From positions 62,001 to 126,000 of the forward strand of contig JAFRDE010000020.1 in assembly GCA_017403985.1 (NCBI GenBank): a stretch of 64,000 nt of DNA. Direction: 5' to 3'. This document shows, in pieces, positions 37,503-62,250 of the stretch (position 1 is the stretch's first letter; each line of letters begins with the position of its first letter). Under the pieces are notes generated by a model. That model did not search any database and was not told where the DNA came from. It saw nothing but the letters and a program-made list of their open reading frames with translations. The position numbers and the translations under genes are program-made. The stretch is from Ruminococcus sp. (lineage in GTDB: Bacteria; Bacillota; Clostridia; Oscillospirales; Acutalibacteraceae).

Positions 37503-37769
37503 AGTTAGGAATGAGGAGTTAGGAGTTAGGAATTGACGGCGGGCGCTGCCCGCACCCATTCTAAGTGACCAGTGTCAAGTGACCAGTGGTTAGTTGAATC
37601 AGGCGGGACACCCGCACCTGATTTGTATAACATCTAACAGAATATGTATCTTACAGTAATAACGCTTGCAGTTCATAAAGGGCTGCAAGCGTTTTTTATA
37701 TGCCTATAAAATTGTATGAGCGCAGCGAGAAACCGAAACTCCTCACTCCTAACTCCTCACTCTTAACTA
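37503..37769. repeat. Modular repeat with central terminator hairpin, copy 1 (inverted)
   Basis: It begins with AGTTAGGAATGAGGAGTTAG strings and a GGCGGGCGCTGCCCGCACCC block and ends with CTCCTAACTCC-type strings. The centre has ACGCTTGCAG-N11-CTGCAAGCGT followed by TTTTTT (37662-37697). The GC block is reversed relative to the other copies. No gene lies here. Confidence 0.75.
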
Positions 37770-38498
37770 AATAACTATTCCTCCATTAACGCCTAAAACC
37801 TGCCCAGTGATAAACTTCGCCTTAGTGCTCGCGAGGAACACGACCGCGTCGGCAATGTCCCCGGGCGTACCGAGGGCGTTCAGCGGCGTTTCCTCTTTCA
37901 ATGCGGCGAGATCGTCGTCCGTGTACTCCGCCATCATATCGGTCATGATCACTCCCGGCGACACCGCGTTGATGCAGATTCCGGAGGGTCCGACCTCCTT
38001 GGCGAGCGCCTTCGTCAGTCCGATCACGCCCGCTTTCGCCGCGGAATAGGCGGCCTCGCAGGACGCGCCGACCTCACCCCACATCGAGGCGATATTGACG
38101 ATCGCACCGCTGTGGGCGAGGATCATATCCTTCAGTGCTTCGCGGCAGCAGTAAAACGTACCGCTGAGGTCGGTATCGATCAGGCGCTTCCACTCGTCGT
38201 CGGTCAAATCGGTCAGCAGTCCGGTGTGGGCGATACCGGCGTTGTTGACGAGGACATCAACCGAGCCCAGCTCCCTGCGGACGGCTTCAAACATCTCTTT
38301 CACCTGCGCGCTGTCGCCGACGTCCGCGCATACGGCAAAAGCCCTCGCGCCGAGGGCTTTTATTTCAGTCACCAATTGATTCGCTTTTTCTTCGCTGCGG
38401 CAGTAATTTATCGCGACATCATAGCCTTCCCTTGCGAAAGCGAGGGCGCACGCGGCGCCGATACCGCGCGAGGCGCCGGTGATCAGTACTACAGACAT
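37767..38498 (-). CDS. Short-chain dehydrogenase/reductase (FabG or EF-P aminopentanone reductase type)
   Basis: This 243-residue Rossmann enzyme has the NADP motif TGASRGIG (7-14), NNAG, the catalytic Ser in NIASMWGEVGAS and YSAAK. C-terminal FITGQVLGVNGGIVI is normal for FabG-like proteins. The block MWGEVGASCEAAYSAAKAGV also fits the clade annotated as elongation factor P 5-aminopentanone reductase (YmfI). No fatty-acid genes are adjacent, which weakly favours the latter. The start is separated from trkH by a 14-bp tandem repeat. Confidence 0.85.
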   Translation of the reverse strand: MSVVLITGASRGIGAACALAFAREGYDVAINYCRSEEKANQLVTEIKALGARAFAVCADVGDSAQVKEMFEAVRRELGSVDVLVNNAGIAHTGLLTDLTDDEWKRLIDTDLSGTFYCCREALKDMILAHSGAIVNIASMWGEVGASCEAAYSAAKAGVIGLTKALAKEVGPSGICINAVSPGVIMTDMMAEYTDDDLAALKEETPLNALGTPGDIADAVVFLASTKAKFITGQVLGVNGGIVI

Positions 38499-38520
38499 AG
38501 TCAGAACCCCTTTTTAAGAG

Positions 38521-38562
38521 TTTCGAGTTGGTAGTTTCGAGTTGGTAGTTTCGAGTTGGAAA
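38521..38562. repeat. Three tandem copies of a 14-bp unit
   Basis: TTTCGAGTTGGTAG is repeated at 38521, 38535 and 38549, the last changed in its final bases. It lies between the SDR start and the trkH stop. Confidence 0.85.
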
Positions 38563-38576
38563 ACTACAAACTAATC

Positions 38577-40031
38577 TTAATTCTTCCTCCAAGCAGAGGG
38601 GATAAAGATCAGCAGGAACGGATACAGCTCCAGTCTGCCCGCGAGCATATTGAAACAGAAAACGATCTTCGAGAACACGGAAAAGCCCGCGTAGTTGCCG
38701 GTCGAGCCGACGACGTTCATACCGGGACCGGTGTTGTTCAGCGTCGCCAGTACGCTCGAAAAGCTCGTCATAAAATCATAGCCGTTCAGCGAAATCAGGA
38801 TCGTCGTGACGATGATGATCGCCATATAGATGGCAAAAAACACGCTGACGGAACGGGACACCTCGTGGGTGATCTTCTTTTGATCCATCTTGACGGTCTG
38901 GACGGTGCGCGGGTGCAGGATCAGCGTGAATTCCTTCCTGATACCCTTGAGCAACAGGATAAAGCGCGATACCTTCAAGCCGCCGCCGGTCGATCCGGCA
39001 CAGGCGCCGATACAGGTCGCGATCAATACCAGCGTTTTTGAAAACTCTGGCCATGTATTGACGTCCGTCGTCGCCATTCCCGTCGAGGATTCGATCGAGG
39101 TGACGTAGAAAAAGCTCTGGTGGATCGAGTTGTACAGGCTGTCGCCGTAGATATGATGCGTATACAGATCGGCGGCGATCAGACCGGTGATCAAGAAAAC
39201 AATTCCGAAATAGACCCACATCTCCTCGCTTTTGACCACCTGTTTGAAGCGGCGGAAAAGGATCAGGATATAGATATAAAAGTTGACGCCGAACAGCATC
39301 ATAAAGACAGCCACAACCGTCTGCAGATACGGGCTGAAGCTCGCCATGCTGTCGTTGTATACCATAAAGCCGCCGGTACCGGCAGTAGAGAACGAGGTGG
39401 TGACCGCATCAAAGATACTCATGCCGCCGCACAGCAGCAGGATACATTCGAGCAGGGTCAGCCCGCCGTAGATCCCGTACAGCAGCGCCGCGTAATTACG
39501 CAGCTTGGGGATGCTTTTGCTGACGGAAGGACCGGTGGACTCCGCCTTCATCAGGTTGATGTTCTGGGTGCCGCCCAGACGCGGGATGATCGCGAGCAGG
39601 AACACGACGACGCCCATACCGCCTAAGAAATGGGAAAAGCTGCGCCAGAACAGCATACAGCGCGGCAGATGCTCGATCTCGGTGAGGATGGTCGCACCGG
39701 TAGTGGTGAAGCCGGAGATCGTCTCGAACACCGCATCCACAAAATGAGGGATCGTGCGCGACCACCAGAGCGGCAGGCATCCTGCGATCGACAGCACCAG
39801 CCACGACAGCGCCGTTGCCGCAAAGCCGTCCTTGAGGTGCATGACGTTGTTTTTCGGCTTTTTGAACACCAGCAGAGCGCCCAGTATCAGCAGCGTAACG
39901 CCGACATAAAAGAAATATTTCATGAAGTGCCATTCCCGGTAGATCAGACCGACCACGGTCGAAATCTGCATCGCAGCGCCTTCGACCAGCAGCACCCATC
40001 CCAAAATATAACTTATCAATCGCTTGTTCAT
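38577..40031 (-). CDS. trkH: Potassium uptake protein TrkH/KtrB family
   Basis: This 484-residue membrane channel has the four pore repeats of Trk/Ktr proteins. Selectivity-loop segments TTTGATI, TAGTGGF, SSTGMATT and NNTGPGMN are all seen, giving one glycine filter position each. It imports K+ under control of the cytosolic TrkA ring, encoded 136 bp upstream on the same strand. Length is normal. Confidence 0.95.
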   Translation of the reverse strand: MNKRLISYILGWVLLVEGAAMQISTVVGLIYREWHFMKYFFYVGVTLLILGALLVFKKPKNNVMHLKDGFAATALSWLVLSIAGCLPLWWSRTIPHFVDAVFETISGFTTTGATILTEIEHLPRCMLFWRSFSHFLGGMGVVVFLLAIIPRLGGTQNINLMKAESTGPSVSKSIPKLRNYAALLYGIYGGLTLLECILLLCGGMSIFDAVTTSFSTAGTGGFMVYNDSMASFSPYLQTVVAVFMMLFGVNFYIYILILFRRFKQVVKSEEMWVYFGIVFLITGLIAADLYTHHIYGDSLYNSIHQSFFYVTSIESSTGMATTDVNTWPEFSKTLVLIATCIGACAGSTGGGLKVSRFILLLKGIRKEFTLILHPRTVQTVKMDQKKITHEVSRSVSVFFAIYMAIIIVTTILISLNGYDFMTSFSSVLATLNNTGPGMNVVGSTGNYAGFSVFSKIVFCFNMLAGRLELYPFLLIFIPSAWRKN

Positions 40032-40069
40032 GGTTTTCTCCTATAAAACAGCCTGTTATGCAAGGCGGC

Positions 40070-40155: not shown

Positions 40156-40167
40156 GGTTTCTATGAT

Positions 40168-46089: not shown

Positions 46090-46210
46090 GTCATTGCGAA
46101 GCCCCATCGGGGCTGTGGCAATCCCCTTGTCGGAAATACAGTTTGATGTAAGAGAAGTGTAATACCCCTCTTTGTGGGATTGCCACGTCGCTTACGCTCC
46201 TCGCAATGAC
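46090..46210. repeat. GTCATTGCGAGG-family element, copy 5
   Basis: A 121-bp element from GTCATTGCGAAGCCCC to GCTCCTCGCAATGAC with inner GTGGCAATCCCC and GTGGGATTGCCAC, between gltX and glnS. Confidence 0.85.
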
Positions 46211-46256: not shown

Positions 46257-47948
<1,692 letters not shown>

Positions 47949-47960
47949 TGCACTTCTTCT

Positions 47961-48163
47961 AATGAGAAATTAGGAATTTTGAGAAACGCTGATGCGTTTT
48001 GAATGGATAATACAGTTATATAACAATAACGCTCATGACTCTTTTAAAAAGCCATGAGCGTTTTTTGTTAAGAAATGGTCTTGATAAATACAATTAAATC
48101 GGGTGCGGGCAGAGCCCGCCATTCATTCCTAATTCCTAACTCCTAACTCCTAACTCCTAATTC
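47961..48163. repeat. Modular repeat with central terminator hairpin, copy 2
   Basis: Order: AATGAGAAATTAGGAATT, GAAACGCTGATGCGTTTT hairpin, ACGCTCATG..CATGAGCGT hairpin with TTTTTT (48029-48066), CGGGTGCGGGCAGAGCCCGCC, then strings of CCTAACT. The hairpin serves as the glnS terminator. Confidence 0.85.
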
Positions 48164-49536
48164 ACCAAAGCGCTGATCGCCGCTTCGACGACGGGGGTCG
48201 CGGCTTGGATGCCGTAGCCGCCCTCGACAACGGTCGCGGCAAAGGCGTAGGGATGGTTCATATCGTCGATGAAGCCGACGAACCACGCGGTCGGCTCCTT
48301 ATCCTCCCCTACCTCGGCGGTACCGGTCTTGGCGCAGAAAGGCAGTCCCGACAGACTGACGCCGCGCCATGAATAGCTTTCGGCGGAGCCCTTCATCAGC
48401 TCCTTGACTTTAGACGCGGTATCGGCGCTGATCATCGGCACATCGCCGCCCTTGTTGACGGCGATATTCAGCTTGTCGATCAGGTTGCCATCATCCTCCA
48501 CGATGTAGGGCGCGGCGGCGGTGCCGTCGTTCGCGACAGCGGAGGAGATCATCGCCATCAGCATCGGATTCGCAAGGTCCGTGTACTGTCCGATCCCCGA
48601 CCACGCGAGCGCGTTGTCGCCGTCGCCGACGGCGTCGTAGTGGCTTTCGATGATCGGGATCTCGCTCATCTTGAAGCTGTCGTTATTGAAGCCGAATTTT
48701 TCGGCGGTCTCTTTCATCTTGTCGTCGCCGACCTGCGTCGCGATCTGCGCGAAGGCACAGTTGCAGGAATTGGCGAACGCTTCTTTGAACGTCTGGGTAC
48801 CGTGGGCGTACTCGCAGGTGATCGGGTTGCCCTCGACGTCCAGCTCGCCGTAGCAGGTGAAGGTCTGATCGTATATATCTGGGACGTTCTCGATCGCCGC
48901 CGCCGCGGTGATGATCTTGAACACCGAGCCGGGAGTGAAGCGGGAGGATACGACGTTGTCGAGATACACGCCGTCGTATTCGTCCTCATTTTCCTCGGTG
49001 ATCTCGGGCGGATCGGCAGGGTCGAAGCTCGGCGCGGAAACGTCGCACAGCACCTCGCCCGTCAGATAGTTGTATACCACGCAGCAGCCCTTTTTGCCGT
49101 TCATCGCTTCATACGCCGCTGTACACGCATCCGCGTCCACCGTCAGCTTGAGGTCGGTGTTCGGGCGCAGGGAATCGGGCACGCCCGCACCCAAGATGAA
49201 GTTATAACCCGACAGTCCGGTACGGTAGCGGCTCTGGATACCGGTCGAGATATTCAGCCCGTCGTCGCCGATAACATGGAGGAGGGCTTCGCGGGTGGTT
49301 TCATCGTCGCTGTAATAGCGCTCGTTGTTCTCGCTGTAGGCGAGGGTCTTGTCGTTGCGGTCATAGATCTTGCCCGCCTTGCTGAGCCCGTTCGCGGACG
49401 CCATATGTCCGTTGAAGGGCTGCTGTACCCACTCGTTGTGGTGCCAGACGGTCATCACGCTGAGGTATACCATACCGCCTAAAAAGGCGAAGGTCACGAA
49501 CCACAGGACCAGTGAACGCGTCAATATCCGTTTCAT
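48157..49536 (-). CDS. Class B penicillin-binding protein (transpeptidase)
   Basis: This 459-residue PBP has one N-terminal membrane helix (about 8-30) and a short non-catalytic domain. In the transpeptidase domain are S204-x-x-K207 (TPGSVFKI), S257-C-N259 and K403-T-G. It is shorter than cell-division FtsI proteins and resembles the PbpA type. Its ATG overlaps the upstream FHA-SEDS gene by 4 bp; SEDS glycosyltransferase plus class B PBP is the standard peptidoglycan polymerase pair. Confidence 0.94.
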   Translation of the reverse strand: MKRILTRSLVLWFVTFAFLGGMVYLSVMTVWHHNEWVQQPFNGHMASANGLSKAGKIYDRNDKTLAYSENNERYYSDDETTREALLHVIGDDGLNISTGIQSRYRTGLSGYNFILGAGVPDSLRPNTDLKLTVDADACTAAYEAMNGKKGCCVVYNYLTGEVLCDVSAPSFDPADPPEITEENEDEYDGVYLDNVVSSRFTPGSVFKIITAAAAIENVPDIYDQTFTCYGELDVEGNPITCEYAHGTQTFKEAFANSCNCAFAQIATQVGDDKMKETAEKFGFNNDSFKMSEIPIIESHYDAVGDGDNALAWSGIGQYTDLANPMLMAMISSAVANDGTAAAPYIVEDDGNLIDKLNIAVNKGGDVPMISADTASKVKELMKGSAESYSWRGVSLSGLPFCAKTGTAEVGEDKEPTAWFVGFIDDMNHPYAFAATVVEGGYGIQAATPVVEAAISALVN

Positions 49537-51278
49537 GCGCGCACCTCCCTATCCCGCCTGTCCTGAACGGGCAAAGCGTTTTCGGGAGCTTTCACCCTGC
49601 GCTTCGCGGCGTAGGTGCGCTCGTCAGCAGCCTTGATAAAGGCGAGCAGTCCCCAGCAGGAGATCATCGATGAGCCGCCCGCCGACAGGAACGGCAGCGT
49701 AACGCCGGTCAGCGGCAGGATATCCGTGATGCCGAAGATGTTCAAAGCACTTTGCACCACCATCAGCCCCGCTGCACAGCATGCGGAGATCGCGTAAAAG
49801 CTGGAGCGGGAACGGGTCGTGATCGCGCGGGAATAGAACGCCAGCGCGATGATCGCCGCCGCCAGAGCGAACGCGATGATCACGCCCATCTCCTCGGCGA
49901 CCAGTCCGAACACGAGATCGGATTCGGACGCGAATACATATTTGAGATAGCCGTTGCCGACGCCGACGCCGAACAAGCCGCCCGACGCCATATAGGACAT
50001 CACGCGCACCTGCTGGTAGCCGCCGCTGTCCTGCGTATGCTCCCACACGTGTCCCCACGCCGAAAAACGGTCGGCGACATAGGGCTTGACGTTGAGCACG
50101 AGGAAGACGGCGAACGCCGCCGCGACGAGCGCCAGGATCACGGTCTTGAAGTCGCCCGAACGCATGAACGCGATGAGCAGGAAGGTCATGAAGAAGATCA
50201 GCGCGGTACCGAAGTCGCCCATCAGCGCGAGCGCGCCGACGCAGATCGCCGAAAAGACGATGAACTCGATGAAGTTGCGCTTGGTCTGTAATTTATCCAG
50301 CGCCGCCGCGCCGACGAAAATGAACGCGACTTTGACAAATTCCGACGGCTGTACGGAGATACCGCCGATAGAGATCCAGTTCGCCGCGCCGTAGGTGACA
50401 CGCGCGAAGATAAAGGTGACGCCGAGCAGTCCCACGGAACCGAGCATGATCCACAGCCGCCACGAGTTGACGCGGTCGGGATTCTCGATGAATTTGACGA
50501 TCACGGCAAAAAGGATCATACCGATGACCATCGCGATCAGCTGGACGATCGACGAACGAAGCTCCTGCCGCACGAGCAGTAGGATTCCCATGCCCGAAAG
50601 GAAGCACGCCAAAGCCTCCAACTCAAAATTCACGCGGTTCAGAGCGTAAGACGAAACGCAGAAGAACGCCCACATCACGAGCTCCATCGCGCCGAACACA
50701 AACAGCGGCGCGAAGTCCTGCACTTCGTTACTAAAACACGCCTCCACCGCCATGAACAGGTGGAAGAAGGTGATCAGGATCATTAATTTGTACGGCTTTA
50801 AAGCGCCCTTATCCGACGCCTTGGAGAAGAACCACGAGGGCCGCAGCTTCTCCTGATACTCCTCGCCGCGCTTTAAGATCAGGGTCGTATGACCGATGGT
50901 GATCTCGTCGTCGAGCGCCACCATCGTACGCCCCTCGGCGCGTTCTCCGTTAACGAAGGTGCCGAACTTGGAGCCGATATCCGAGATGAACCAGCCCTCC
51001 TTGCGCCTGAGAAAAACACAGTGGTCGCGCGACACGCTGATATCCGAGATGCGGATATCCGATCCCTTTGACCTGCCGATGGAGTTTTCCCAGAAGAGGA
51101 CGGGGATCTTCTGCCCCGTCTGGAGCACCTCCAGCGTGACCAGCGGCTTTTCGGGACGTCTGTGACGGCGCGCGGAAGCAAAGCACTGGTAAATGATCAC
51201 CAGCGCGTACACGGGCAGCAGCGCCCGCAGCGCGATCGCCGCGATATCCAGAAGGACCTGCAGATTCAAACGCCTCAC
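49533..51278 (-). CDS. FHA domain fused to SEDS peptidoglycan glycosyltransferase (FtsW/RodA/SpoVE family)
   Basis: This 581-residue protein starts with a membrane helix (about 10-32). A forkhead-associated domain follows at about 48-135 with the phosphothreonine-binding residues G68-R-S70, S83-R-x-H86 and N110-G111. Ten SEDS helices occupy ~160-550, including the catalytic loop NWISIGGISVQPSEF and FLSAGGSSM. The fusion lets a Ser/Thr-kinase-phosphorylated partner recruit or control a peptidoglycan polymerase. Its transpeptidase partner is the next gene. No kinase gene lies in the window. Confidence 0.93.
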   Translation of the reverse strand: MRRLNLQVLLDIAAIALRALLPVYALVIIYQCFASARRHRRPEKPLVTLEVLQTGQKIPVLFWENSIGRSKGSDIRISDISVSRDHCVFLRRKEGWFISDIGSKFGTFVNGERAEGRTMVALDDEITIGHTTLILKRGEEYQEKLRPSWFFSKASDKGALKPYKLMILITFFHLFMAVEACFSNEVQDFAPLFVFGAMELVMWAFFCVSSYALNRVNFELEALACFLSGMGILLLVRQELRSSIVQLIAMVIGMILFAVIVKFIENPDRVNSWRLWIMLGSVGLLGVTFIFARVTYGAANWISIGGISVQPSEFVKVAFIFVGAAALDKLQTKRNFIEFIVFSAICVGALALMGDFGTALIFFMTFLLIAFMRSGDFKTVILALVAAAFAVFLVLNVKPYVADRFSAWGHVWEHTQDSGGYQQVRVMSYMASGGLFGVGVGNGYLKYVFASESDLVFGLVAEEMGVIIAFALAAAIIALAFYSRAITTRSRSSFYAISACCAAGLMVVQSALNIFGITDILPLTGVTLPFLSAGGSSMISCWGLLAFIKAADERTYAAKRRVKAPENALPVQDRRDREVRA

Positions 51279-51307
51279 CTCCGAAAGGGGATATTTTTAC
51301 AGTTTAT

Positions 51308-51336
51308 ATTTTACTATACGGTATGCCGAAAGTCAA
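51308..51336 (-). promoter_or_regulatory. Sigma-A promoter of the FHA-SEDS/PBP operon
   Basis: Minus-strand TTGACT (51336-51331) and TAAAAT (51313-51308), 17-bp spacer, about 30 bp before the start codon. Confidence 0.7.
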
Positions 51337-51394
51337 ATGAACGGAATGTAAATTTAAGGTGAAAATGAAGGGTTAGGGTGACTGTAGTAGTCCT

Positions 51395-51522
51395 ACGAAA
51401 AAGCCTGACGGCTTTTGCATTACTATAACGATAGAAAACAATAATGCTCATGACTCTTTGAGAAGCCATGAGCATTTTTGCTTTTTATCAGTAATATCAG
51501 GTGCAGGCGGAGCCCGCCGTTA
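51395..51522. repeat. Modular repeat with central terminator hairpin, copy 3
   Basis: It holds AAAGCCTGACGGCTTTT, the hairpin ATGCTCATG..CATGAGCAT with TTTTT (51444-51479) and GGTGCAGGCGGAGCCCGCC. The flanking string of short repeats is lost. It lies downstream of the L,D-transpeptidase gene. Confidence 0.75.
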
Positions 51523-51533
51523 ACCAATCACCG

Positions 51534-53000
51534 TCAATAGATGATGACCGGCGTGCCGGTGGGAATGTTGTTATAGATGGTCCTTACCGCGTTGTAAGGC
51601 GTGTTGACACAGCCGTGGGAGCCGTTGCCCTTGTAGATCGGGTTACCGAACTCGGAACGCCAGGAGGCGTCATGGATACCGTAGGAGGTGCCGATGAAAG
51701 CCATCCAGTATTCAACAAAGGAGCTGTAACCCGCACCGTTAAGATAGATGTTGCGGGACTTGCTCTCTACCTCATAGTAGCCCTTGGGGGTATCACAGTC
51801 GCCCTTGTTGCCGGTAACGACCTCGGTAGAGGCGATCTGGCTGCCGTTCTTGTACGCCCACATATGCTGCTGGTCGATACTGATCTCAATATAGGTGCTG
51901 CCGACATAGTCGCCGTAGGCCCTGTCGGTGATCTTCTGGCTCTTCTTATTGCTGGTGCCCTCGATCGTGGTGGAACCGCTCCTGTAGATCGGACGGATGC
52001 GGAACCAGTAGGTCTTGCCGACGGGCAGCTTCTGTGTATTGTAATACAGGCGCGGAGTGGTGAACTGCTTGACAAAGCCGGAGTTGCTCGAGGTGGTGGA
52101 CATGAACACCTCGTAGTGGGTCGCGTACGCATTGGCGCGCCATGTCAGATTCACTCTGCCGAGGCGGGAGGTGATGGAATAGTCGGGTCCGCACAGACCG
52201 CCCATAAAGGTCATGGTCGCCGCGTCGGAGCTGTAGGAAGTATCATAAAGCTCTCTGAACGCCTTGACGCGGAATTTATAGACGCGGCCGCCCTTGGCGC
52301 CGCTCTCGGTATAGGTGGTATTCTTGTTGCCGCGGATGGTCTTATAGAGCGTTTCCTTGCCGCCGCCCTCGGTGCGGTAGATGCGGTAACCGGTCGCCTT
52401 ATCGTTGCGGTCCCATTCCATCTCCATCACGTCGGAGGAGCGCCACTTGGTCAGCCCCGTAACCTTCGCGGGCTGGGTAGCGGTCTTCTTGAGCGTCTTT
52501 TCACCCTCGATGATACTGCCCTTGTACTCGATGTACGCACTGACCTTGAAGTGGTACTGTGTACCCTGTCGCAGGGGCGTAACGAGGCAGGAGTTGGTCT
52601 TGACGTCGGCAAACCTCGAGAAGTTCTTATGGTTGTCGGCGTTCAGATAATAAACATAATAGCCGGACGCGCCCTCAACGGGATCCCAGTTCAGCAGGCA
52701 GGCGTCGCTCTCATAGCTGTCTCTTTCGAGATTCTTGACTCTGCCCACCTCAGGCACAGGCTCTTCGGTGGGAGCCTCTGTGGGAGCTTCGGTAGGCGCT
52801 TCGGTACCGGGCTCGACCGCGACGGGTGCAAGATCGGCGTTATCCGCCGGGACGGTCTCTTCGACGATCTCTTCCGCGACGGTAGGCTCTGCGGTGTCCT
52901 CTGCGTCGGCGGCGGTAAAGCCGACAGCCGTCATGGCGCCGACCGTGATGAATATCGCCATCAGTACACAGAGCAGCTTTTTGGTAGTTCCTTTCATCAT
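51534..53000 (-). CDS. Secreted L,D-transpeptidase with fibronectin type III domains
   Basis: This 488-residue protein has a signal peptide (about 1-32), an acidic stretch, a TEAPTEAPTEAP linker, three fibronectin type III modules (about 85-355) and a C-terminal YkuD domain. The catalytic motif runs from H443 to S-H462-G-C464. Such enzymes make 3-3 crosslinks in peptidoglycan or attach proteins, using a carbapenem-sensitive cysteine. The Fn3 modules probably position it in the wall. AAGGAGAG precedes two adjacent ATGs; the first is used here. Confidence 0.94.
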   Translation of the reverse strand: MMKGTTKKLLCVLMAIFITVGAMTAVGFTAADAEDTAEPTVAEEIVEETVPADNADLAPVAVEPGTEAPTEAPTEAPTEEPVPEVGRVKNLERDSYESDACLLNWDPVEGASGYYVYYLNADNHKNFSRFADVKTNSCLVTPLRQGTQYHFKVSAYIEYKGSIIEGEKTLKKTATQPAKVTGLTKWRSSDVMEMEWDRNDKATGYRIYRTEGGGKETLYKTIRGNKNTTYTESGAKGGRVYKFRVKAFRELYDTSYSSDAATMTFMGGLCGPDYSITSRLGRVNLTWRANAYATHYEVFMSTTSSNSGFVKQFTTPRLYYNTQKLPVGKTYWFRIRPIYRSGSTTIEGTSNKKSQKITDRAYGDYVGSTYIEISIDQQHMWAYKNGSQIASTEVVTGNKGDCDTPKGYYEVESKSRNIYLNGAGYSSFVEYWMAFIGTSYGIHDASWRSEFGNPIYKGNGSHGCVNTPYNAVRTIYNNIPTGTPVIIY

Positions 53001-53215
53001 ATCTCTCCTTACATTTTGTATCTGTCAGGTCATGCACACACAATATGTGCGATGGATGTTAACAAACTGTTAATAAAAATCATTTTAACACGGTTGTCCG
53101 TTCTTTGCAAGGGGTTTTATCAACTTTTTAGGGGCGAAGGTTTTGATATTTTCGGCGTAAAACGGTCGGCTTTTATCACTTTTTGACAAAAAAGCCGAAA
53201 TCGGCTCGTTTCCGA

Positions 53216-53245
53216 CAAAAAGCGGCGGAGATCACTCTCCGCCGC
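53216..53245 (-). terminator. Intrinsic terminator of the hflX-lipoprotein unit
   Basis: Minus-strand GCGGCGGAGA-GTGA-TCTCCGCCGC with a TTTTT tract. The 53001-53215 stretch otherwise holds only the L,D-transpeptidase upstream region. Confidence 0.85.
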
Positions 53246-53259
53246 CGATAGGCTGTCTG

Positions 53260-53718
53260 TTATTCCGTTGCATCCTGAGCGGAAAGCACATCTGCAGATT
53301 TGACGTCGTAAGAAGAAGTGTCCGCGCCCGGCTTTGCAAAATACCCGTATTCACCGTCGGCGAGCTTAAGCTCCAACACGCCGCCTTTCATCACAGCGGT
53401 CATGGTCTCGTTGTTTAAATCGGTGATGGTGACGGTCGAACCGTTCACAACAAAGGTCAGCGCGTTGGAATAGGCGCTGTTATCGAAGCTCCCCGTACCG
53501 TCGGCGTTCAGTGTGACCGTACTTACATCCGTCGAACCCTCCACGCTGACAACAGCATCACCGGACTGAGCAGTCTTGATACCGAACAGTGTGTAGGTAC
53601 CGACGTACTCTTCGGGGATCGCCTGACTGTCGGCAGTATTCTGACCGCAGCCGCACAGCGCAAAGATCAGCACCGTTATCAAAACGGATGCGATGATCGT
53701 TTTAATAGCTTTCATCAT
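53260..53718 (-). CDS. Small lipoprotein of unknown function
   Basis: The start at 53718 (AGGAGG upstream) gives 152 residues with a lipoprotein signal peptide ending LCGC. The mature part contains a beta-strand-rich repeat-like stretch, TVTLNADGTGSFDNS and GSTVTITDLNNETMTA, typical of small lipocalin-like or DUF-type extracellular lipoproteins in Ruminococcaceae. No function can be given. It begins 10 bp after hflX and ends at a strong terminator. Confidence 0.8.
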   Translation of the reverse strand: MMKAIKTIIASVLITVLIFALCGCGQNTADSQAIPEEYVGTYTLFGIKTAQSGDAVVSVEGSTDVSTVTLNADGTGSFDNSAYSNALTFVVNGSTVTITDLNNETMTAVMKGGVLELKLADGEYGYFAKPGADTSSYDVKSADVLSAQDATE

Positions 53719-53728
53719 TATTTTCCTC

Positions 53729-54973
53729 CTAATCAATGACAAATTCTCTCAGCCGCGCATATTGGATCTCGTCGAGGGTGACCTCGATCTCAAGCCCGTC
53801 GGCGGTGTATTCCTCAGCATGCAGGACGGCTGACTGCCGCAGCTTGGCGGCGATACCCGCTTTATCAAAAGGCAGGAGGAGCTTTACCCTTTTCAGCTTT
53901 TTCGGCAGGTTATCCTCGATCGCTTTCAGCAGATCGTCGATACCGGTCCCGTACTTTGCCGAAATATGTACCGCGCCGGAGATACCGGTCATGTTGTCGT
54001 GGATAAGATCGCACTTATTCAGCACGGGGATGATCGGCTTGTCCAGACTCGACAGGGACGCCAGCAGATCCCGCGTGACCTCCAAATGCAGACGGCTTTC
54101 CTCGCTGCTCGCGTCGCAGACGTTGAGGATGATATCCGCCTGCGCGGCTTCCTCGAGCGTCGACTTGAATGCCTCTACAAGATGATGGGGCAAACGTCTG
54201 ACCAGTCCGACGGTGTCGATCAACATGACGGATACGCCGTTCGGGAGCTTTAGCGCGCGCGAGGTCGGGTCGAGGGTGGCGAAGAGCTTGTCCTCGCTGA
54301 GCACGCCCGCGTCGGTGAGGGTATTCATCAGGGTGGACTTGCCGGCATTGGTATAGCCGACGATGGCGACGGTGATCACGCCGTCTTTCGCACGGCGGCT
54401 CCTGAGCTGATGGCGGTGCGCCTCCACATCGGCGAGCTGTTCCTTCAGGGTCTCCATCCTGCGCTTGATATGACGGCGGTCGGTCTCTAACTTCGTCTCG
54501 CCGGGGCCTCTTGTTCCGATACCGCCGCCCAGACGCGACATCTCGACGCCTTTGCCGGTGAGGCGGGGCATCATGTATTTGAGCTGCGCCAGTTCCACCT
54601 GCAGCTTACCCTCTCGGGACTTCGCGCGCAAGGCGAAGATATCGAGGATCAGCATGGTGCGGTCGATGGCGCGCACGTCGGTCTCTTTCTCGATGTTGCG
54701 GATCTGCACGGGAGAGAGTTCGAGATCGAAGATGATCAGGTCGATCTCCTCGGCTTCGCAGTACTCCTTGATCTCCTCCAGCTTGCCCGAGCCGACACAG
54801 GTCGCGGCGTCGACATGCTGCAGCTTCTGGCTGATCGACGCGACAGGCTCCGCGCCGGCGCTTTCGGCGAGCTCAAACAGTTCCGCCAAAGACGCTTCGG
54901 CGTCATATTCGCCGGTATCGACCTCGACGAGCAGGGCGCGGGTCGGCTTTTGTTCGGTAACAGTCAATTCCAT
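53729..54973 (-). CDS. hflX: GTPase HflX
   Basis: This 414-residue GTPase splits or rescues stalled ribosomes under stress. The N-terminal nucleotide-binding subdomain (to ~180) and the glycine-rich GGGIGTRGPGETKLETDRR linker precede the G domain with GYTNAGKST (G1), DTVGLV (G3) and NKCD (G4). A C-terminal region follows. A small lipoprotein gene lies 10 bp downstream. Confidence 0.97.
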   Translation of the reverse strand: MELTVTEQKPTRALLVEVDTGEYDAEASLAELFELAESAGAEPVASISQKLQHVDAATCVGSGKLEEIKEYCEAEEIDLIIFDLELSPVQIRNIEKETDVRAIDRTMLILDIFALRAKSREGKLQVELAQLKYMMPRLTGKGVEMSRLGGGIGTRGPGETKLETDRRHIKRRMETLKEQLADVEAHRHQLRSRRAKDGVITVAIVGYTNAGKSTLMNTLTDAGVLSEDKLFATLDPTSRALKLPNGVSVMLIDTVGLVRRLPHHLVEAFKSTLEEAAQADIILNVCDASSEESRLHLEVTRDLLASLSSLDKPIIPVLNKCDLIHDNMTGISGAVHISAKYGTGIDDLLKAIEDNLPKKLKRVKLLLPFDKAGIAAKLRQSAVLHAEEYTADGLEIEVTLDEIQYARLREFVID

Positions 54974-55065
54974 ATCGTTCTCCGTAAAAACAGTTGAATT
55001 CTTTTGATGTACCTATTATAATAGGTAATAATCAAAAATGCAAACGGAGTTTTCCTTATTCCTCA

Positions 55066-55401
55066 TTAAATCAAAAGGTACATCAGCGCCAGCGTCAGGT
55101 TCATATCCGCGCCGTCTTTCATCAACAGCACCAACAGCAACAGGATCAGGCTCTGATCCTTATCCTTCATAAAGATATCGAGCAGGCTGCCGGGCGATGA
55201 TGTTTTTTCGGGGGACGGTTTTTCTTCGGAAGCCTCCTTTTCCGCCTTCGGCGGTTCGGGCTTCGGTTCTGATGGCTGCGTTTGCGGAGCGGGACGAGGC
55301 TGACGCGGAATGTTGCCGGTATCGGCGCGCGCGCCGTCAAAAGGCGCGTACATCCGCCTGACCCTTTCCATCGCCTCCTGCTCCAATGATTGCTGCGGCA
55401 T
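55066..55401 (-). CDS. Small protein with C-terminal hydrophobic segments, unknown function
   Basis: From the ATG at 55401 (AGGAGG spaced 5 nt) come 111 residues. The N-terminal ~80 are charged and Pro/Glu/Lys-rich (PQTQPSEPKPEPPKAEKEAS). The end, LLDIFMKDKDQSLILLLLVLLMKDGADMNLTLALMYLLI in two pieces, is two hydrophobic helices around KDGAD. It is the third gene of a small operon. I do not know the family; similar tails occur in clostridial proteins of unknown role. Confidence 0.7.
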   Translation of the reverse strand: MPQQSLEQEAMERVRRMYAPFDGARADTGNIPRQPRPAPQTQPSEPKPEPPKAEKEASEEKPSPEKTSSPGSLLDIFMKDKDQSLILLLLVLLMKDGADMNLTLALMYLLI

Positions 55402-55420
55402 ATCGTCCTCCTGTATCAAA

Positions 55421-55804
55421 TCACAAGTCAAACAGCGGAAGGTCCTTCAACAGCGGCATCAGCTTCATCACCTTGATCAGGCGCTTTGCCTTATCGAGCT
55501 TTATCCGGCGCTCTTCCGATAAAAACGGCCGTATCGCGTCCAAGAGGCGAGTGGTGTCGTCGTCCTGCTTCAAAGAGCCCAGCATCGGCGCGAGCGCCAT
55601 GAGCTGCTTCACCGTGTCGTCGGAGCCCGAAAGGTTCCCCAACAGAGAGGCCGGATCCGACTGAGGCTTGGGCGGCGGCTGGCTCTCCTGCGTATGTAAG
55701 CCCGACGCGTCAACGCCGAGCTGAGAAGCCAGAGCCGCGATGTCCCGCATCGCTTCCGGATCACTTAAAATCCCGCTGAGCTTTTCGGAGAGATCGTCCG
55801 TCAT
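55421..55804 (-). CDS. Small helical protein, unknown function
   Basis: This 127-residue soluble protein opens with MTDDLSEKLSGILSDPEAM, has a short Pro/Gln-rich linker (QESQPPPKPQSDP) and a helical second half with LMALAPMLGSL and LIKVMKLMPLLKDLP. Its ATG overlaps the stop of the upstream gene (ATGA), and the next gene begins 19 bp after its stop. The length, the couplings and the good downstream Shine-Dalgarno sites argue for a functional trio. Function unknown. Confidence 0.72.
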   Translation of the reverse strand: MTDDLSEKLSGILSDPEAMRDIAALASQLGVDASGLHTQESQPPPKPQSDPASLLGNLSGSDDTVKQLMALAPMLGSLKQDDDTTRLLDAIRPFLSEERRIKLDKAKRLIKVMKLMPLLKDLPLFDL

Positions 55805-56034
55805 CCCATGATCCTCTTCATGATCGCTTTCGCCTGCGGCGAGTTCAGGAATTCCTTTGCCTTCGCTTCGTCGTTAAGGATCTCTTCCATCTGCTTCGCC
55901 TTATCGGAGGGAAGACGGTTGAGCAGCTTGCCGTAGCTCGACTTACCGACGGCGTCTTTGATCTCGTTTTCGGGCGTACCCGTGCGCTCGCTGAGCTTCT
56001 TTATCAAAATATTGATCTGTTCATGATCAGCCAT
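55801..56034 (-). CDS. Small protein, first gene of an unknown three-gene set
   Basis: The ATG at 56034 behind GAGGTG gives 77 residues (MADHEQINILIKKLSERTG and onward), all-helical and charged, ending FLNSPQAKAIMKRIMG. It overlaps the next gene by 4 bp. It is divergent from the phosphodiesterase gene with only 45 bp between starts, so promoters overlap. Family not recognised. Confidence 0.7.
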   Translation of the reverse strand: MADHEQINILIKKLSERTGTPENEIKDAVGKSSYGKLLNRLPSDKAKQMEEILNDEAKAKEFLNSPQAKAIMKRIMG

Positions 56035-56079
56035 AATCAATTCACCTCATGTATTATACTATGCAGTCAGGAGAAAAAT

Positions 56080-56544
56080 ATGAAAATAATCGTAGTATCC
56101 GATACCCACGGCTCATACAGAAACTTCAGAAAAGTGATGCACCTGCACCGTAACGCCGATATCGTCGTGCACTGCGGCGACAGCCGCGACGAGCTCGACA
56201 AGATCATGATGGATCATCCCAATATGCGCTTTTATGCCGTCAAGGGCAACTGCGACTTCGGCACGAATCTGCCGGTCACAGAGGACTTTACCGTTCAGGG
56301 CGTGCACCTCATGGCGACGCACGGTCATGTTTACAACGTCAAATACGGCTTATTCGACCTTGACCGCGCCGCGAGAGAAAAGGGAGCCGACGTCGTGCTG
56401 TACGGTCACACCCATATCGCGATGGACGTCTTAAGAGACGGGATCCGCTTCTTCAACCCCGGGTCGCTGGGCTACGGCGGCAGCTTCGGCGTGATCGAGA
56501 TCAAGGACGGCATGGTACTCTCCAATATCGCACACTTGAAGTAA
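56080..56544 (+). CDS. YfcE/MJ0936-type metallophosphodiesterase
   Basis: The ATG at 56080 (CAGGAG upstream) gives 154 residues. Metal ligands lie in VVSDTHGS, CGDSRDE, KGNCD, ATHGH and GHTH, the full calcineurin-like set for two metals. These small enzymes hydrolyse phosphodiesters such as cyclic nucleotides in vitro; the true substrate is unclear. The gene precedes holB by 68 bp. Confidence 0.92.
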   Translation: MKIIVVSDTHGSYRNFRKVMHLHRNADIVVHCGDSRDELDKIMMDHPNMRFYAVKGNCDFGTNLPVTEDFTVQGVHLMATHGHVYNVKYGLFDLDRAAREKGADVVLYGHTHIAMDVLRDGIRFFNPGSLGYGGSFGVIEIKDGMVLSNIAHLK

Positions 56545-56612
56545 GCACAAAAATAACAGTAGCTTTTTTGCGGCAACTATGGTATAATGAGGATTTAGAA
56601 GGCGGTGAGGGC

Positions 56613-57470
56613 ATGGAAATCAGACTGCAAAAGGATAACGAAGAGGTCATCCGCGGTCTCGTCAGCTCCGGTCGGATCCCGCACACCGTCATCATCGAGG
56701 GCGGCAACAGCGAAGAGCGCAAATGCGCCGCCGTATTGCTGGCGGCGGGAGCCGTCTGCCGTGAAAAAGACCGTCCGTGCCTGTGCTGCAATGCGTGCCG
56801 CAAGGTGCTCGACGGCTTTCATCCCGACGTCTTCATCCCCGAACCGAGCAAAAACCTCAAAAGCGGCATCCTGTCGCTCAAGGATCTGCGCGATCTCTAT
56901 CTCTCGCAGATGAGCATCAAGCCGAACGAGGCGGACGTCAAGGCGTATCTCTTCATCGACGCGGACAAGCTGCTGCGCGAGGATTCACAGAACGCGCTGC
57001 TCAAAACCATCGAGGAGCCGCCGCAGAATCTGCTGTTCGTCTTCACGGTCGAAAGCGCGAAGTCGATGCTGCTGACGGTGCGCTCGCGCTCGCGCGTCAT
57101 CACGCTCCGTCACACGTTCAGCGCCGACGAAGAGGCTGAACAAGCCGCTTCATCCATCATCGACGGCGTCATCTCGCTGTATGAATACGACCTGCTCAAG
57201 ACGCTGTCCGCGCTGACTGATAAACAGGCGCTCAAGGACGCTCTCGGCGTCTTTGTCGAAAAGCTCAGACAGGCGCTGAGCTTCTACAGCGGTATCGATA
57301 CCGCGGATCCCGACGTCAAAAAGCTGACCCGCAAGCTCGACCGCGCCCGCGTGATCGCGCTGATCGGCGTCACCAACGAGGCTGTCGGCAAGCTCAAAAC
57401 CAACGTTAACCTGCAGCTGCTGCAAACGTGGCTGTCATCACAATACAGGAGGATTACATGGCAGAAGTAA
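56613..57470 (+). CDS. holB: DNA polymerase III subunit delta'
   Basis: From the Met at 56613 the 285-residue product matches the clamp-loader delta' subunit: four zinc-binding cysteines (REKDRPCLCCNACRKV), the AAA+ sensor 1/Walker B region AYLFIDADKLLREDSQNALLKTIEEPP and the late SR motif TVRSRSRVI, in which the usual Cys is Ser. The Walker A is degenerate (IEGGNSEERK), as expected for a subunit that does not use ATP. It overlaps ricT by 13 bp, the usual clostridial order. Confidence 0.92.
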   Translation: MEIRLQKDNEEVIRGLVSSGRIPHTVIIEGGNSEERKCAAVLLAAGAVCREKDRPCLCCNACRKVLDGFHPDVFIPEPSKNLKSGILSLKDLRDLYLSQMSIKPNEADVKAYLFIDADKLLREDSQNALLKTIEEPPQNLLFVFTVESAKSMLLTVRSRSRVITLRHTFSADEEAEQAASSIIDGVISLYEYDLLKTLSALTDKQALKDALGVFVEKLRQALSFYSGIDTADPDVKKLTRKLDRARVIALIGVTNEAVGKLKTNVNLQLLQTWLSSQYRRITWQK

Positions 57471-58330
57471 TCGGCGTAAGATTCAAAGAGGTAGGCAAGG
57501 TCTACTACTTTGACCCCAATAAACTCAAACTCAAACAGGACGCTGTCGTCATCGTCGAGACCTCACGCGGTATCGAATGCGGCAGAGTCGCCATCGCCAA
57601 TAAAGAAGTCCCCGACGAGGAGATCGTCCATCCTTTGAAGAAGGTCATCCGCGTCGCGACTAAGGACGATATGCGCAAATTAGAGGAAAACGCCCGCAAG
57701 GAAAAGGAAGCGCTGAAGATCTGTGAGCAGAAGGTCGCGGAGCACGGGCTGGAAATGAAGCTCGTCGACGTGGAATACACCTTTGATAACTCGAAGATCC
57801 TGTTCTACTTTACCGCTGACGGCAGAGTCGACTTCCGCGCGCTGGTCAAGGATCTCGCGTCCGTCTTCCGCACCCGCATCGAACTCAGACAGATCGGCGT
57901 ACGCGACGAGAGCAAGATGCTCGGCGGCCTCGGCGTATGCGGCAGACCCTTCTGCTGTTCGTCCTTCCTCGGCGAGTTCCACCCCGTATCCATCAAGATG
58001 GCGAAGGAGCAGGGGCTGTCCCTCTCCCCCACCAAGATCTCCGGCACCTGCGGCAGGCTGATGTGCTGCTTAAAATATGAACAGGAGGCGTACTCCGACC
58101 TCTTGAAGCACACCCCCAAGGTAGGCGCGATCGTCAAGACCCCGCTGGGCAGAGGTCTGGTCGTGGAAAGCAACCTACTGACCCGCACGCTCAAGGTCAA
58201 GATGGACAACACGCCCGACGACGCCGCTCCCCAGACCTTCAAGGTCAAGGAGGTACGCATCGTCAAGGACGGCTACATCAAGGTCAACAAGAAAGAGATC
58301 GAGGAGCTGAAACAGCTCGAGGACCAGTAG
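57458..58330 (+). CDS. ricT: PSP1 domain protein RicT (YaaT)
   Basis: The ATG at 57458 follows AGGAGG by 5 nt, inside the end of holB. The 290-residue protein has a PSP1 domain (about 60-145) and the iron-sulfur cysteine set GVCGRPFCCSSF and CGRLMCC. In Bacillus the Ric complex (RicA/F/T) directs RNase Y-dependent RNA processing and affects sporulation phosphorelay. The C-terminal KOW-like stretch and acidic tail are usual. The terminator lies in the repeat at 58391-58427. Confidence 0.95.
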   Translation: MAEVIGVRFKEVGKVYYFDPNKLKLKQDAVVIVETSRGIECGRVAIANKEVPDEEIVHPLKKVIRVATKDDMRKLEENARKEKEALKICEQKVAEHGLEMKLVDVEYTFDNSKILFYFTADGRVDFRALVKDLASVFRTRIELRQIGVRDESKMLGGLGVCGRPFCCSSFLGEFHPVSIKMAKEQGLSLSPTKISGTCGRLMCCLKYEQEAYSDLLKHTPKVGAIVKTPLGRGLVVESNLLTRTLKVKMDNTPDDAAPQTFKVKEVRIVKDGYIKVNKKEIEELKQLEDQ

Positions 58331-58331
58331 A

Positions 58332-58525
58332 ATAATTAGGAATTTTGGGAAACGCTGACGCGTTTTGATTTGTAATAACGACATATAAAAACGTCTGCAG
58401 CTCTATGATATTGCTGTAGACGTTTTTCCTGTATACGACGTTTATTGTCTGGTATTTTAGGAATCGGGTGCGGGCAGCGCCCGCCCTTAATTCCTCATTC
58501 CTCATTCCTCATTCCTCACTAAATT
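58332..58525. repeat. Modular repeat with central terminator hairpin, copy 4
   Basis: Order: AATTAGGAATTTTGG, AAACGCTGACGCGTTT hairpin, ACGTCTGCAGC..GCTGTAGACGT with TTTTT (58391-58427), CGGGTGCGGGCAGCGCCCGCC, then TTCCTCA strings. The central hairpin is the only terminator candidate for holB-ricT. Confidence 0.85.
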
Positions 58526-58567
58526 AGATTTCTCCGGTTAGCATATGATAATTTTTTAAACAAGACC

Positions 58568-58595
58568 TTGATTTTTTCAGCGGTTGTGCTACAAT
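58568..58595 (+). promoter_or_regulatory. Sigma-A promoter of the ferredoxin gene
   Basis: TTGATT (58568-58573) and TACAAT (58590-58595) with a 16-bp spacer, 28 bp before the start codon. Confidence 0.7.
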
Positions 58596-58623
58596 GTAGG
58601 CAACAACTATAAGGAGGTTCATT

Positions 58624-59740: not shown

Positions 59741-59805
59741 GCCTCCCTTTTCTAAGGGAGGTGGCGCGCAGCGCCGGAGGGTTGCCGCAAAGCGGCTTTC
59801 CTGCG
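59738..59805. repeat. AAGGCTCCCTTT-family half element before rsmI
   Basis: TAAGCCTCCCTTTTCTAAGG and CGCAGCGCCGGAGGGTTGCCG form hairpins. The first bases include the TAA stop of the methyltransferase gene. Confidence 0.75.
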
Positions 59806-59822
59806 TTTATGAAAGGATTATT

Positions 59823-60644: not shown

Positions 60645-60671
60645 ACAAGACTGACGATAAAGGAGATCTTT

Positions 60672-61934
60672 ATGACCTACGAAGACAGCTTACGCTTCAT
60701 CTATTCGCTCGACAAATACGGCTCGCGGCCCGGACTCGACAGAATCAGAAAACTGTTCCGCCTCATCCCCGGGCTGACGGGACAGAAATTCGTCCATATC
60801 GCCGGCACCAACGGCAAGGGCTCCGTCTGCGCGATGCTCAGCGCCGTGACGGCAAAGGCGGGATATAAAACGGGGATGTTCACCTCCCCCGCCGTCGTCG
60901 ATATCCGTGAGCGTATACAGATCAATAACCATATGGTCGGGAAAGAAACCTTCGCCGCGGCGGTAGAGGCGCTCAAGCCGCTCGTGGAACAGCTCAACGC
61001 CGACGGCACCGTGATCACAGAGTTCGAGTTCTTCACCGCGCTGGGTTTCTACATCTTCAAAGAAGAAAAATGCGATATCGTCTTCTGTGAAGCGGGGATG
61101 GGCGGCTTACAGGACGCCACCAACCTCATCCCCTATCCGCTTTGCTCGGTGATCACCCGCATCGACCTTGACCACACCGCTTTTCTCGGCGAATCGATCG
61201 AGGCGATCGCCTTCCAGAAAGCGGGTATCATCAAAAGCTATTCGACCGCCGTCGTCGCCCCGCAGGTGCGCGAGGCGTACGCCGTGATTGAGCAGAAAGC
61301 GAGAGAGGAACACAACACCCTCTACCGCGCCGAGGACGTGCGCCTGACGGTCACCGACAAAAGCCGCGGCGGCACGCGTTTTATCTACCGCGACGTCGAA
61401 ATGCTCCTGCCGCAGATCGGCGCTCACCAGATCGATAACCTGCGCTGCGCGCTCGCGGTGATCGAGGTGCTGCAAAAAGAGCATCATATGACGATCTCTG
61501 CCGAAAATATCCGCGACGGTCTCAAAGAGCTGCGCCATCCCGCGCGCTTTGAAAAGCTGCGCGACGATCCAACGGTGATACTCGACGGTGCCCACAACCC
61601 CAACGGACTGCATGCGTTCGCCCGCGCGGTACGCACCTACTACCCCGACGGCGACAAAACGCTGATCATCGGGATGCTCGCCGATAAGGACAGCCGCGTG
61701 CTGAGTTATCTCGACGGGCTGTTCACCCGCGTCATCGCCGTCGATATCAACAACCCCAGAGCGCTGCCCGCCGAAGATCTGGCAAGGCGGCTGGGTGGTA
61801 TCGCGGAAAGCGTCGAGGTGATATCCGACCCGAAAGCGGCGTATGAAAAAGCGCTGACATACGGCGGCGATATCTTCATCTGCGGTTCGCTGTACCTCGC
61901 CCGCGAGATCAGACCGGCTGTTTTGAATAAATAA
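60672..61934 (+). CDS. folC: Folylpolyglutamate synthase / dihydrofolate synthase
   Basis: This 420-residue Mur-ligase-type enzyme adds glutamate to folates and makes dihydrofolate from dihydropteroate. The P-loop is AGTNGKGSVCAML (about 43-55), then EFEFFTALGFYIF, the EAGMGG metal site and the C-terminal DGAHNPNG. AAGGAGA precedes the ATG. It ends the trmN-rsmI-folC run with a terminator at 61966-62001. Confidence 0.95.
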   Translation: MTYEDSLRFIYSLDKYGSRPGLDRIRKLFRLIPGLTGQKFVHIAGTNGKGSVCAMLSAVTAKAGYKTGMFTSPAVVDIRERIQINNHMVGKETFAAAVEALKPLVEQLNADGTVITEFEFFTALGFYIFKEEKCDIVFCEAGMGGLQDATNLIPYPLCSVITRIDLDHTAFLGESIEAIAFQKAGIIKSYSTAVVAPQVREAYAVIEQKAREEHNTLYRAEDVRLTVTDKSRGGTRFIYRDVEMLLPQIGAHQIDNLRCALAVIEVLQKEHHMTISAENIRDGLKELRHPARFEKLRDDPTVILDGAHNPNGLHAFARAVRTYYPDGDKTLIIGMLADKDSRVLSYLDGLFTRVIAVDINNPRALPAEDLARRLGGIAESVEVISDPKAAYEKALTYGGDIFICGSLYLAREIRPAVLNK

Positions 61935-61965
61935 AGCCTGTCCGTCAAAAATCAGCATATTATTC

Positions 61966-62001
61966 AAGCCTATCCTGATAGAATCGGGGTAGGCTTTTTT
62001 A
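61966..62001 (+). terminator. Intrinsic terminator of folC
   Basis: AAGCCTATCC pairs with GGGGTAGGCTT and is followed by TTTTTT. Confidence 0.85.
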
Positions 62002-62002
62002 G

Positions 62003-62250
62003 TTAGGAATGAGGAATTAGGAATTTCGGGAAACGCTGACGCGTTTTAAATTGAAATAACAACATAAAAAAGTAATGTCCGCGACTCTTTGATAAGCTGC
62101 TGACATTTTTCTTTTCCTGTTTATGTCATTGCGAGGGAGCTTGCGACCGTGGCAATCCCACAAAGAGGAGCAGCACCCTTCTCATAATGACTTTTTTTCG
62201 GGTGCGGGCAGCGCCCGCCATTCATTCCTCATTCCTAATTCCTCATTTAA
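62003..62250. repeat. Modular repeat copy 5 with a nested GTCATTGCGAGG element
   Basis: Order: AGTTAGGAATGAGGAATTAG, AAACGCTGACGCGTTT, ATGTCCGCG..TGCTGACAT with TTTTT (62075-62111), a 67-bp GTCATTGCGAGG-family element (62125-62191), GGGTGCGGGCAGCGCCCGCC, then CATTCCTAATTCC strings. It fills the whole region between folC and spoIIAA, so the spoIIA promoter must lie in it or upstream. Confidence 0.8.

What the first reader, a model, noticed from the sequence alone, without database searches (positions are those of the whole stretch)
37503..62250. Modular dispersed repeat that carries a covarying terminator hairpin
Copies at 37503, 47961, 51395, 58332 and 62003 share order and flanks, but the central stem differs with both arms changing: ACGCTCATG/CATGAGCGT, ATGCTCATG/CATGAGCAT, ACGTCTGCAG/CTGYAGACGT, ACGCTTGCAG/CTGCAAGCGT. 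Each is followed by 5-6 T. Several lie where a gene needs termination (ECF S gene, glnS, ricT). This looks like a mobile or modular transcription terminator under structural selection, a class I do not know to be described.
Basis: partly seen in the sequence, partly recalled or inferred. Interest (0 to 1): 0.75.

Follow-up and report, generated by a model that had tools for sequence, protein, structure and literature searches.

The report
Modular intergenic repeat carrying bidirectional terminator
Some uncultured Ruminococcus-like gut bacteria carry a small dispersed DNA element that folds on itself, and its copies between two genes that run towards each other usually contain a hairpin that looks like a two-way transcription stop signal, while many copies between genes running the same way lack it.

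Summary
The five window copies belong to a dispersed intergenic element found in several genomes of one Ruminococcus-like genus. Anatomy: inverted heptamer arms, hairpin 1, an optional central hairpin (HP2), hairpin 3. HP2 covaries: 8 of 9 predicted pairs show both-sided changes, and the signal falls away when partners are slid. T-rich tails lie on both strands (6.3 and 6.1 T of 9). HP2 tracks gene arrangement: intact HP2 is between convergent genes in 24 of 28 classifiable copies, absent or broken HP2 in 1 of 69 (p=1.4e-17; 6 of 98 if genome G023 is included). Starting from HP2, 39 of 46 sites are convergent against 17 of 244 background pairs. At 17 of 24 convergent sites HP2 is the only terminator found. 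Best reading: a MITE-like modular repeat whose optional module is a bidirectional intrinsic terminator. Termination and transposition are inferred, not shown.

The parts
47966..47978 (+). left heptamer arm, copy 2 (short, TTAGGAA type)
47981..48002 (+). hairpin 1 (HP1), copy 2, downstream of glnS
   Evidence: C15:109981-110002
48029..48066 (+). HP2 hairpin and T tract, copy 2; convergent genes glnS(+) and penicillin-binding transpeptidase(-)
48100..48163 (+). hairpin 3 (HP3) and right inverted heptamer arm, copy 2
58331..58346 (+). left heptamer arm, copy 4 (after the PSP1-domain, RicT-like gene)
58347..58368 (+). HP1, copy 4
58391..58427 (+). HP2 and T tract, copy 4; co-directional genes
58465..58520 (+). 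HP3 and right arm, copy 4
62003..62026 (+). left heptamer arm, copy 5, starting just after the T tract of a terminator-like hairpin at 61966-61996
62028..62049 (+). HP1, copy 5
62065..62118 (+). HP2 with mismatched stem, copy 5; co-directional genes
62199..62250 (+). HP3 and right arm, copy 5, separated from HP2 by a CATTGCGAGG..GCAATCCC repeat
51397..51420 (+). HP1 of AAAGCC type, copy 3
51444..51479 (+). HP2 and T tract, copy 3, between two minus-strand genes (FtsW/RodA-type and YkuD-type)
51500..51518 (+). HP3, copy 3
37502..37557 (-). arm and HP3 of copy 1 (composite), after the ECF substrate-component gene
37600..37620 (-). second HP3-like hairpin of the composite copy 1
37662..37697 (+). 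HP2 and T tract, copy 1; convergent genes
37716..37768 (-). alternative hairpin 1 and opposite heptamer arm, copy 1

Best explanation
A MITE-like, non-coding, modular repeat: inverted heptamer arms form a basal stem, from which hairpin 1, a centre and hairpin 3 branch. The centre is optional: many copies have only a short linker, others carry HP2, a hairpin with a conserved loop (RACTCTTTGA) and T-rich tails on both strands. HP2 most likely stops RNA polymerase arriving from either side, so it serves both genes of a convergent pair and is the only intrinsic terminator at most such sites examined. Shown: anatomy, covariation, two-sided T tails, convergent bias, presence and absence at glnS, one in-place inversion. 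Inferred: termination in the cell, transposition, and selection rather than tolerance.
For: Covariation: 8 of 9 pairs with both-sided changes; score 0.456 vs 0.247 shuffled and 0.04-0.15 slid; on 44 model-found sequences 0.438 vs 0.216 shuffled, 0.06-0.12 slid. T tails 6.34 forward and 6.09 reverse of 9, against 31% T in the element interior (32 copies). Context: intact HP2 convergent 24 of 28, not intact 1 of 69; own genome alone 9 of 10 vs 0 of 13 (p=1.2e-5); four other genomes 9 of 10 vs 0 of 27 (p=8e-8); HP2-anchored 39 of 46. HP2 is called a terminator on both strands at 18 of 24 convergent sites, and no other terminator is called at 17 of 24; of 16 convergent regions without an HP1-like sequence 15 have a call, at least two of them HP2-like themselves. 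At glnS, of the five species nearest by GlnS identity G035, G012 and G017 carry the element, G004 and G060 a plain GC-rich hairpin.
Against: No RNA data. About 15 sites with HP2 lie between co-directional genes: 4, 7 model-found, 5, one of them counted twice. 'Intact' was defined by stem pairing, and model-found sequences lean to the structure. With G023 included, not-intact copies are convergent in 6 of 98. With the other hairpin-1 type the link is weaker: intact 15 of 20 convergent, not intact 6 of 20 (p=0.010); three of those six have HP2 with a loop longer than my rule allowed (p=0.0003 if counted intact). Short copies are not significantly rarer than background at convergent sites (1 of 59 vs 17 of 244, p=0.21). 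Runs of 4 or more T occur in only 18 of 32 (forward) and 17 of 32 (reverse) tails. In the second covariation set the number of pairs with both-sided change is not beyond shuffles (81 of 500).
Confidence: 0.72

Rival explanations
1. Passive parasite: the repeat moves at random, and HP2 copies survive mainly between convergent genes because elsewhere they harm transcription; no service to the host (the main reading given for SPRITE).
For: Convergent bias is what purging predicts; the 10 'broken' rows with known context are all non-convergent, though some are chance matches to the loop; short copies follow the background. The SPRITE authors argue this way, while also suggesting co-option (passages).
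Against: HP2 is the only terminator called at 17 of 24 convergent sites, and stems are kept through many paired changes, which tolerance alone does not predict.
Confidence: 0.35
2. Covariation comes from mutation, not selection: template switching within quasi-palindromes or conversion between copies rewrites both arms at once.
For: Heptamer arms also change type together (66 of the 78 copies with both arms typed match); hairpins 1 and 3 vary in paired fashion by eye; stems come in a few recurring types.
Against: Does not explain T-rich tails on both strands or the link to gene arrangement.
Confidence: 0.25
3. HP2 is a structured DNA or RNA site for another purpose (protein binding, processing, transposition), and its likeness to a terminator is incidental.
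For: The loop stays nearly fixed although stems change, which a terminator does not need.
Against: Copies without HP2 are common (64 of 110), so it is not needed for the repeat's spread; T tails and convergent bias fit termination.
Confidence: 0.15

Closest known systems
[quoted passage not shown]
   Same: Small dispersed repeat resembling an intrinsic terminator, enriched between convergent genes and near gene 3' ends, possibly co-opted (PMC3049150, passages).
   Different: SPRITE is described as an 18-bp duplex with a U-rich tract and AAAA/TTTT ends; here the hairpin is an optional module inside a larger element with heptamer inverted arms and two more hairpins, diverse covarying stems and T tails on both strands.
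BOX elements of pneumococcus
   Same: Modular, with end modules and an optional variable middle; a BOX element has been proposed to act as a terminator (passages).
   Different: Sequences not compared; no heptamer arms are mentioned in the passages seen.
REP / BIME palindromes
   Same: Small palindromes lying mainly between unidirectional and convergent genes (PMC3733652, passages).
   Different: No Y1 (IS200-like, PF01797) transposase found in the own genome; the GTAG/CGTC tag was not tested.
TAACTGA heptamer direct repeats (Beggiatoaceae, cyanobacteria, some Bacteroidetes)
   Same: Intergenic heptamer arrays that put stop codons in all three frames in one direction (PMC4679880, passages).
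   Different: There direct arrays, mostly facing a start codon; here inverted pairs bounding an element, with several heptamer types.
Small dispersed repeats of cyanobacteria (Elhai et al. 2008)
   Same: Very small mobile repeats; that they can be flanked by heptamer tracts is recalled, not checked.
   Different: Paper not read; its title was seen only in a reference list.

Membership tests
Intrinsic (Rho-independent) terminator | G+C-containing stem followed by a T-rich tract | tested here: met
   32 HP2 copies, mean T of 9 6.34 forward and 6.09 reverse; called on both strands at 18 of 24 convergent sites
Intrinsic (Rho-independent) terminator | Stops transcription | not testable with these tools
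   no RNA data
MITE | Terminal inverted repeats, short, non-coding, many intergenic copies | tested here: met
   arms of a copy match each other above permuted pairs (mean 15.96 vs 9.14, sd 0.60; own partner in the top 10% for 39 of 89); 23 HP1 copies in the own genome
MITE | Target site duplication and a partner transposase | tested here: inconclusive
   only PF01797 searched, no match in the own genome; target duplications not worked out
MITE | Occupied and empty sites in relatives | tested here: inconclusive
   glnS: element in own, G035, G012, G017, not in G004 and G060, but no exact empty site could be defined
SPRITE | Same sequence family | not tested
   sequences not compared; anatomy differs from the passages
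REP/RAYT | Y1 (RAYT-type) transposase in the genome | tested here: not met
   no PF01797 match at E<=0.001 in the own genome
REP/RAYT | GTAG or CGTC tag at the foot of the palindrome | not tested
   not examined systematically
Known Rfam family | Match to a curated covariance model | tested here: not met
   whole window at gathering score: one tRNA only; 47900-58600 at E<=1, which holds three copies: only a weak osmY match at 50456-50526, outside the copies

The most novel reading that the evidence does not exclude
A self-contained, invertible intergenic punctuation cassette: inward-facing heptamer arms stop translation in all three frames from both sides, an interchangeable bidirectional hairpin stops transcription from both sides where genes converge, the hairpin is lost or swapped when the surroundings change, and the matched arms let the whole cassette flip or be rewritten in place.
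Probability: 0.25. Interest if true: 0.72.

Novelty: new variant of a known kind. Interest (0 to 1): 0.5.

Why it matters
If HP2 is a working two-way terminator, this is a natural series in which a dispersed repeat supplies terminators with diverse, covarying stems, and in which the presence of the module can be read against gene arrangement copy by copy. It offers a ready set of natural bidirectional terminators and a test case for how parasitic repeats become punctuation.

Tried and rejected
Rejected: chance repeats; a known Rfam RNA; plasmid or phage DNA (one copy searched in each, no match); an IS200-type partner in the own genome. The claim that short copies avoid convergent sites was dropped (p=0.21). 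Frequent in-place inversion was not upheld: of 34 site pairs compared, 27 have cores no more alike than the 95th percentile of random pairs, and of 14 flipped pairs only one passes it, barely (0.84 vs 0.83), so opposite orientation may be separate insertions; the glnS pair G012/G017 is the clear case. A stop-codon role for the arms stays a suggestion: inward stops in all three frames in 80% of arms of 42 bases, outward 25%, shuffled 36%, which may follow from purine-rich heptamers. Paper searches bearing on novelty; none listed this element, but the library is partial. Of the papers named I saw passages only.

Rows dropped: 31 copies of G023, 26 of them without a hairpin-3 match (29 classifiable: 5 convergent, 22 co-directional, 2 divergent; none with HP2), left out of the main table; 13 rows of unknown context; L103 left out of the HP2 alignment, the damaged L040 and the window copy 51443 put in, and L128 not passed on, so 33 of the 34 sequences went into; 4 of 48 sites (L284, L297, L303, L306) left out of A2. 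L054 and L060 are probably chance hairpin-1 matches. Sets overlap (L301 and L106 are one site; about a third of the 40 sites are also), and allowed slightly longer loops. Of 30 glnS loci 14 gave no usable gene call and were not read. Genes were called by my own script, not by a standard gene finder.

Full report
What is there. Five copies of one element lie in the window. From the window and overlapping loci L001-L053 of the own genome the anatomy is: a heptamer tract (TTAGGAA, TTAGGAG, TGAGGAA and other types), hairpin 1 (GGGAAACGC-TGAC-GCGTTTTG or GGGAAAGCC-TGAC-GGCTTTTG), an A+T-rich stretch, an optional hairpin HP2, more A+T-rich DNA, hairpin 3 (GGTGCGGGC-AGC-GCCCGCC, GGTGAGGGC..GCCCTCC, GGTGCGGGTGTCCCGCC) and the inverted heptamer tract. 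The five window copies fold better than shuffles, z -4.46 to -9.23; in four of them the arms form the basal stem, in 51395 only a few bases do. Copy 62003 and others hold a second dispersed repeat (CATTGCGAGG..GCAATCCC) between HP2 and hairpin 3, and copy 37503 is a composite.

Distribution. The hairpin-1 pattern (up to 3 mismatches) has 23 hits in the own genome, none in the reversed control. It matches in 8 of 59 genomes including the own: 5 or more hits in G000, G004, G012, G017, G023 and G035, one each, probably by chance, in G002 and G053; the control gave one hit in 59. An exact 25-mer was found in 51 stretches of genome contigs, whose titles name MAGs of Ruminococcus, Ruminococcaceae, Oscillospiraceae, Clostridia, Clostridiales or just 'bacterium', some from goat or reindeer; the own genome has no name here. 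The HP2 model R1 matches at E<=0.1 in 31 of 60 genomes of the genus including the own; 10 to 42 matches (both strands of one palindrome count twice) occur in G000, G004, G012, G017, G035, G067 and G073, the others have 1-4. In a draw from the order, 11 of 146 other genomes have 1-3 matches at E<=0.001, the best 41.7 bits, which I read as ordinary terminators.

Covariation. On 33 distinct HP2 sequences RNAalifold predicts 9 pairs, 8 with both sides changed in some sequence. Counting a 13-pair structure: 91.1% of cells pair (81.3% shuffled), covariation 0.456 (0.247 shuffled, 0 of 500), slid controls 0.04-0.15. On 44 sequences found by the model in other genomes: 90.4% (79.6% shuffled), 0.438 against 0.216, slid 0.06-0.12; there the number of pairs with both-sided change (9) is not beyond shuffles (81 of 500). 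The loop CTCTTT stays nearly fixed while stems change. Both sets favour paired stems by how they were chosen.

Gene arrangement. Genes were called by a small codon-usage script whose calls in the window agree by eye with the long reading frames. Of 141 hairpin-1 copies, 110 remain without G023 and 97 of them have a known context. Intact HP2: 24 convergent, 4 co-directional. Absent or broken: 1 convergent, 65 co-directional, 3 divergent (p=1.4e-17). With G023 the second group would be 6 convergent of 98. Own genome: 9 and 1 against 0 and 13 (p=1.2e-5); G004, G012, G017 and G035 together: 9 and 1 against 0 and 27 (p=8e-8). Starting from HP2, 48 sites in seven other genomes: 39 convergent, 7 co-directional, 2 unknown, none divergent; at least three of them (L274, L284, L297) show no arms or other hairpins. 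Background pairs without an HP1-like sequence: 17 convergent of 244. With the other hairpin-1 type, 40 sites: intact 15 convergent and 5 co-directional, not intact 6 convergent and 14 others (p=0.010); of those six, three carry HP2 with a long loop, two another hairpin in its place, one is a short copy. Short copies are not rarer than background at convergent sites. So HP2, not the repeat, goes with convergence.

Terminator features. After the outermost G-C pair the next 9 bases hold 6.34 T forward and 6.09 T on the other strand in 32 copies, against 31% T in the element interior. A terminator scan calls HP2 on both strands at 18 of 24 convergent sites; 17 of 24 have no other call; 15 of 16 convergent regions without an HP1-like sequence have a call, at least two of them (window 37501-37766, L083) HP2-like themselves.

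Movement and change. At glnS, own, G035, G012 and G017 carry the element before a convergent gene; G004 and G060 carry plain GC-rich hairpins; the ten more distant loci that could be read show none by eye, 14 of 30 loci were not readable by the script. G073 and G067 also show it at what reads as a glnS end (by eye). G012 and G017 hold nearly identical cores in opposite orientation: intergenic identity 0.66 direct, 0.86 reversed, one difference by eye within the core. G035 has the same HP2 hairpin but another arm type on both sides. Across 89 copies left and right arms match above permuted pairs (15.96 vs 9.14, sd 0.60), 66 of 78 with both arms typed agree in type, though the own partner is in the top 10% for only 39 of 89. 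At 27 of 34 shared-site pairs cores are no more alike than random copies, so turnover or repeated insertion is fast.

Verdict. A modular dispersed repeat whose optional module has the sequence marks of a bidirectional intrinsic terminator. SPRITE and BOX in pneumococcus are the closest described relatives in kind (passages). What is new to me is the combination: interchangeable covarying two-way terminator, matched inverted heptamer arms, a strong link between module and gene arrangement, and one in-place inversion.

Noticed in passing
window 62130-62190, 2812-2862, 33776-33874, 46111-46187: A second dispersed palindromic repeat (CATTGCGAGG...GTGGCAATCCC, often with CACAAAGAGG) that also sits inside copies of the element between HP2 and hairpin 3.
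   Followed up: no
window 15783-15833, 29470-29599, 31632-31764: A third dispersed repeat (GTAGGGACGA..CGTCCGC), with two copies in inverted orientation 2 kb apart.
   Followed up: no
L237 and L238 (glnS locus of G012 and G017): Near-identical element core in opposite orientation at the same site in two species.
   Followed up: yes
window 61966-62003; L003; L026: The heptamer arm begins directly after the T tract of an ordinary terminator-like hairpin, hinting at insertion into terminators.
   Followed up: no
L151-L175 and L058, L064, L069, L074 (genome G023): 31 hairpin-1 copies, only 5 with a hairpin-3 match and none with HP2: a divergent branch of the repeat.
   Followed up: no
L107 (OMTA01000001.1): Two hairpin-1 units about 130 bases apart in the same direction.
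   Followed up: no
heptamer arms of 89 copies: Read inwards, 80% of arms have stop codons in all three frames within 42 bases, read outwards 25%.
   Followed up: partly
L328, L333, L351: Copies whose frame holds a hairpin unlike HP2 in the central place, as if another terminator had been swapped in (by eye).
   Followed up: no
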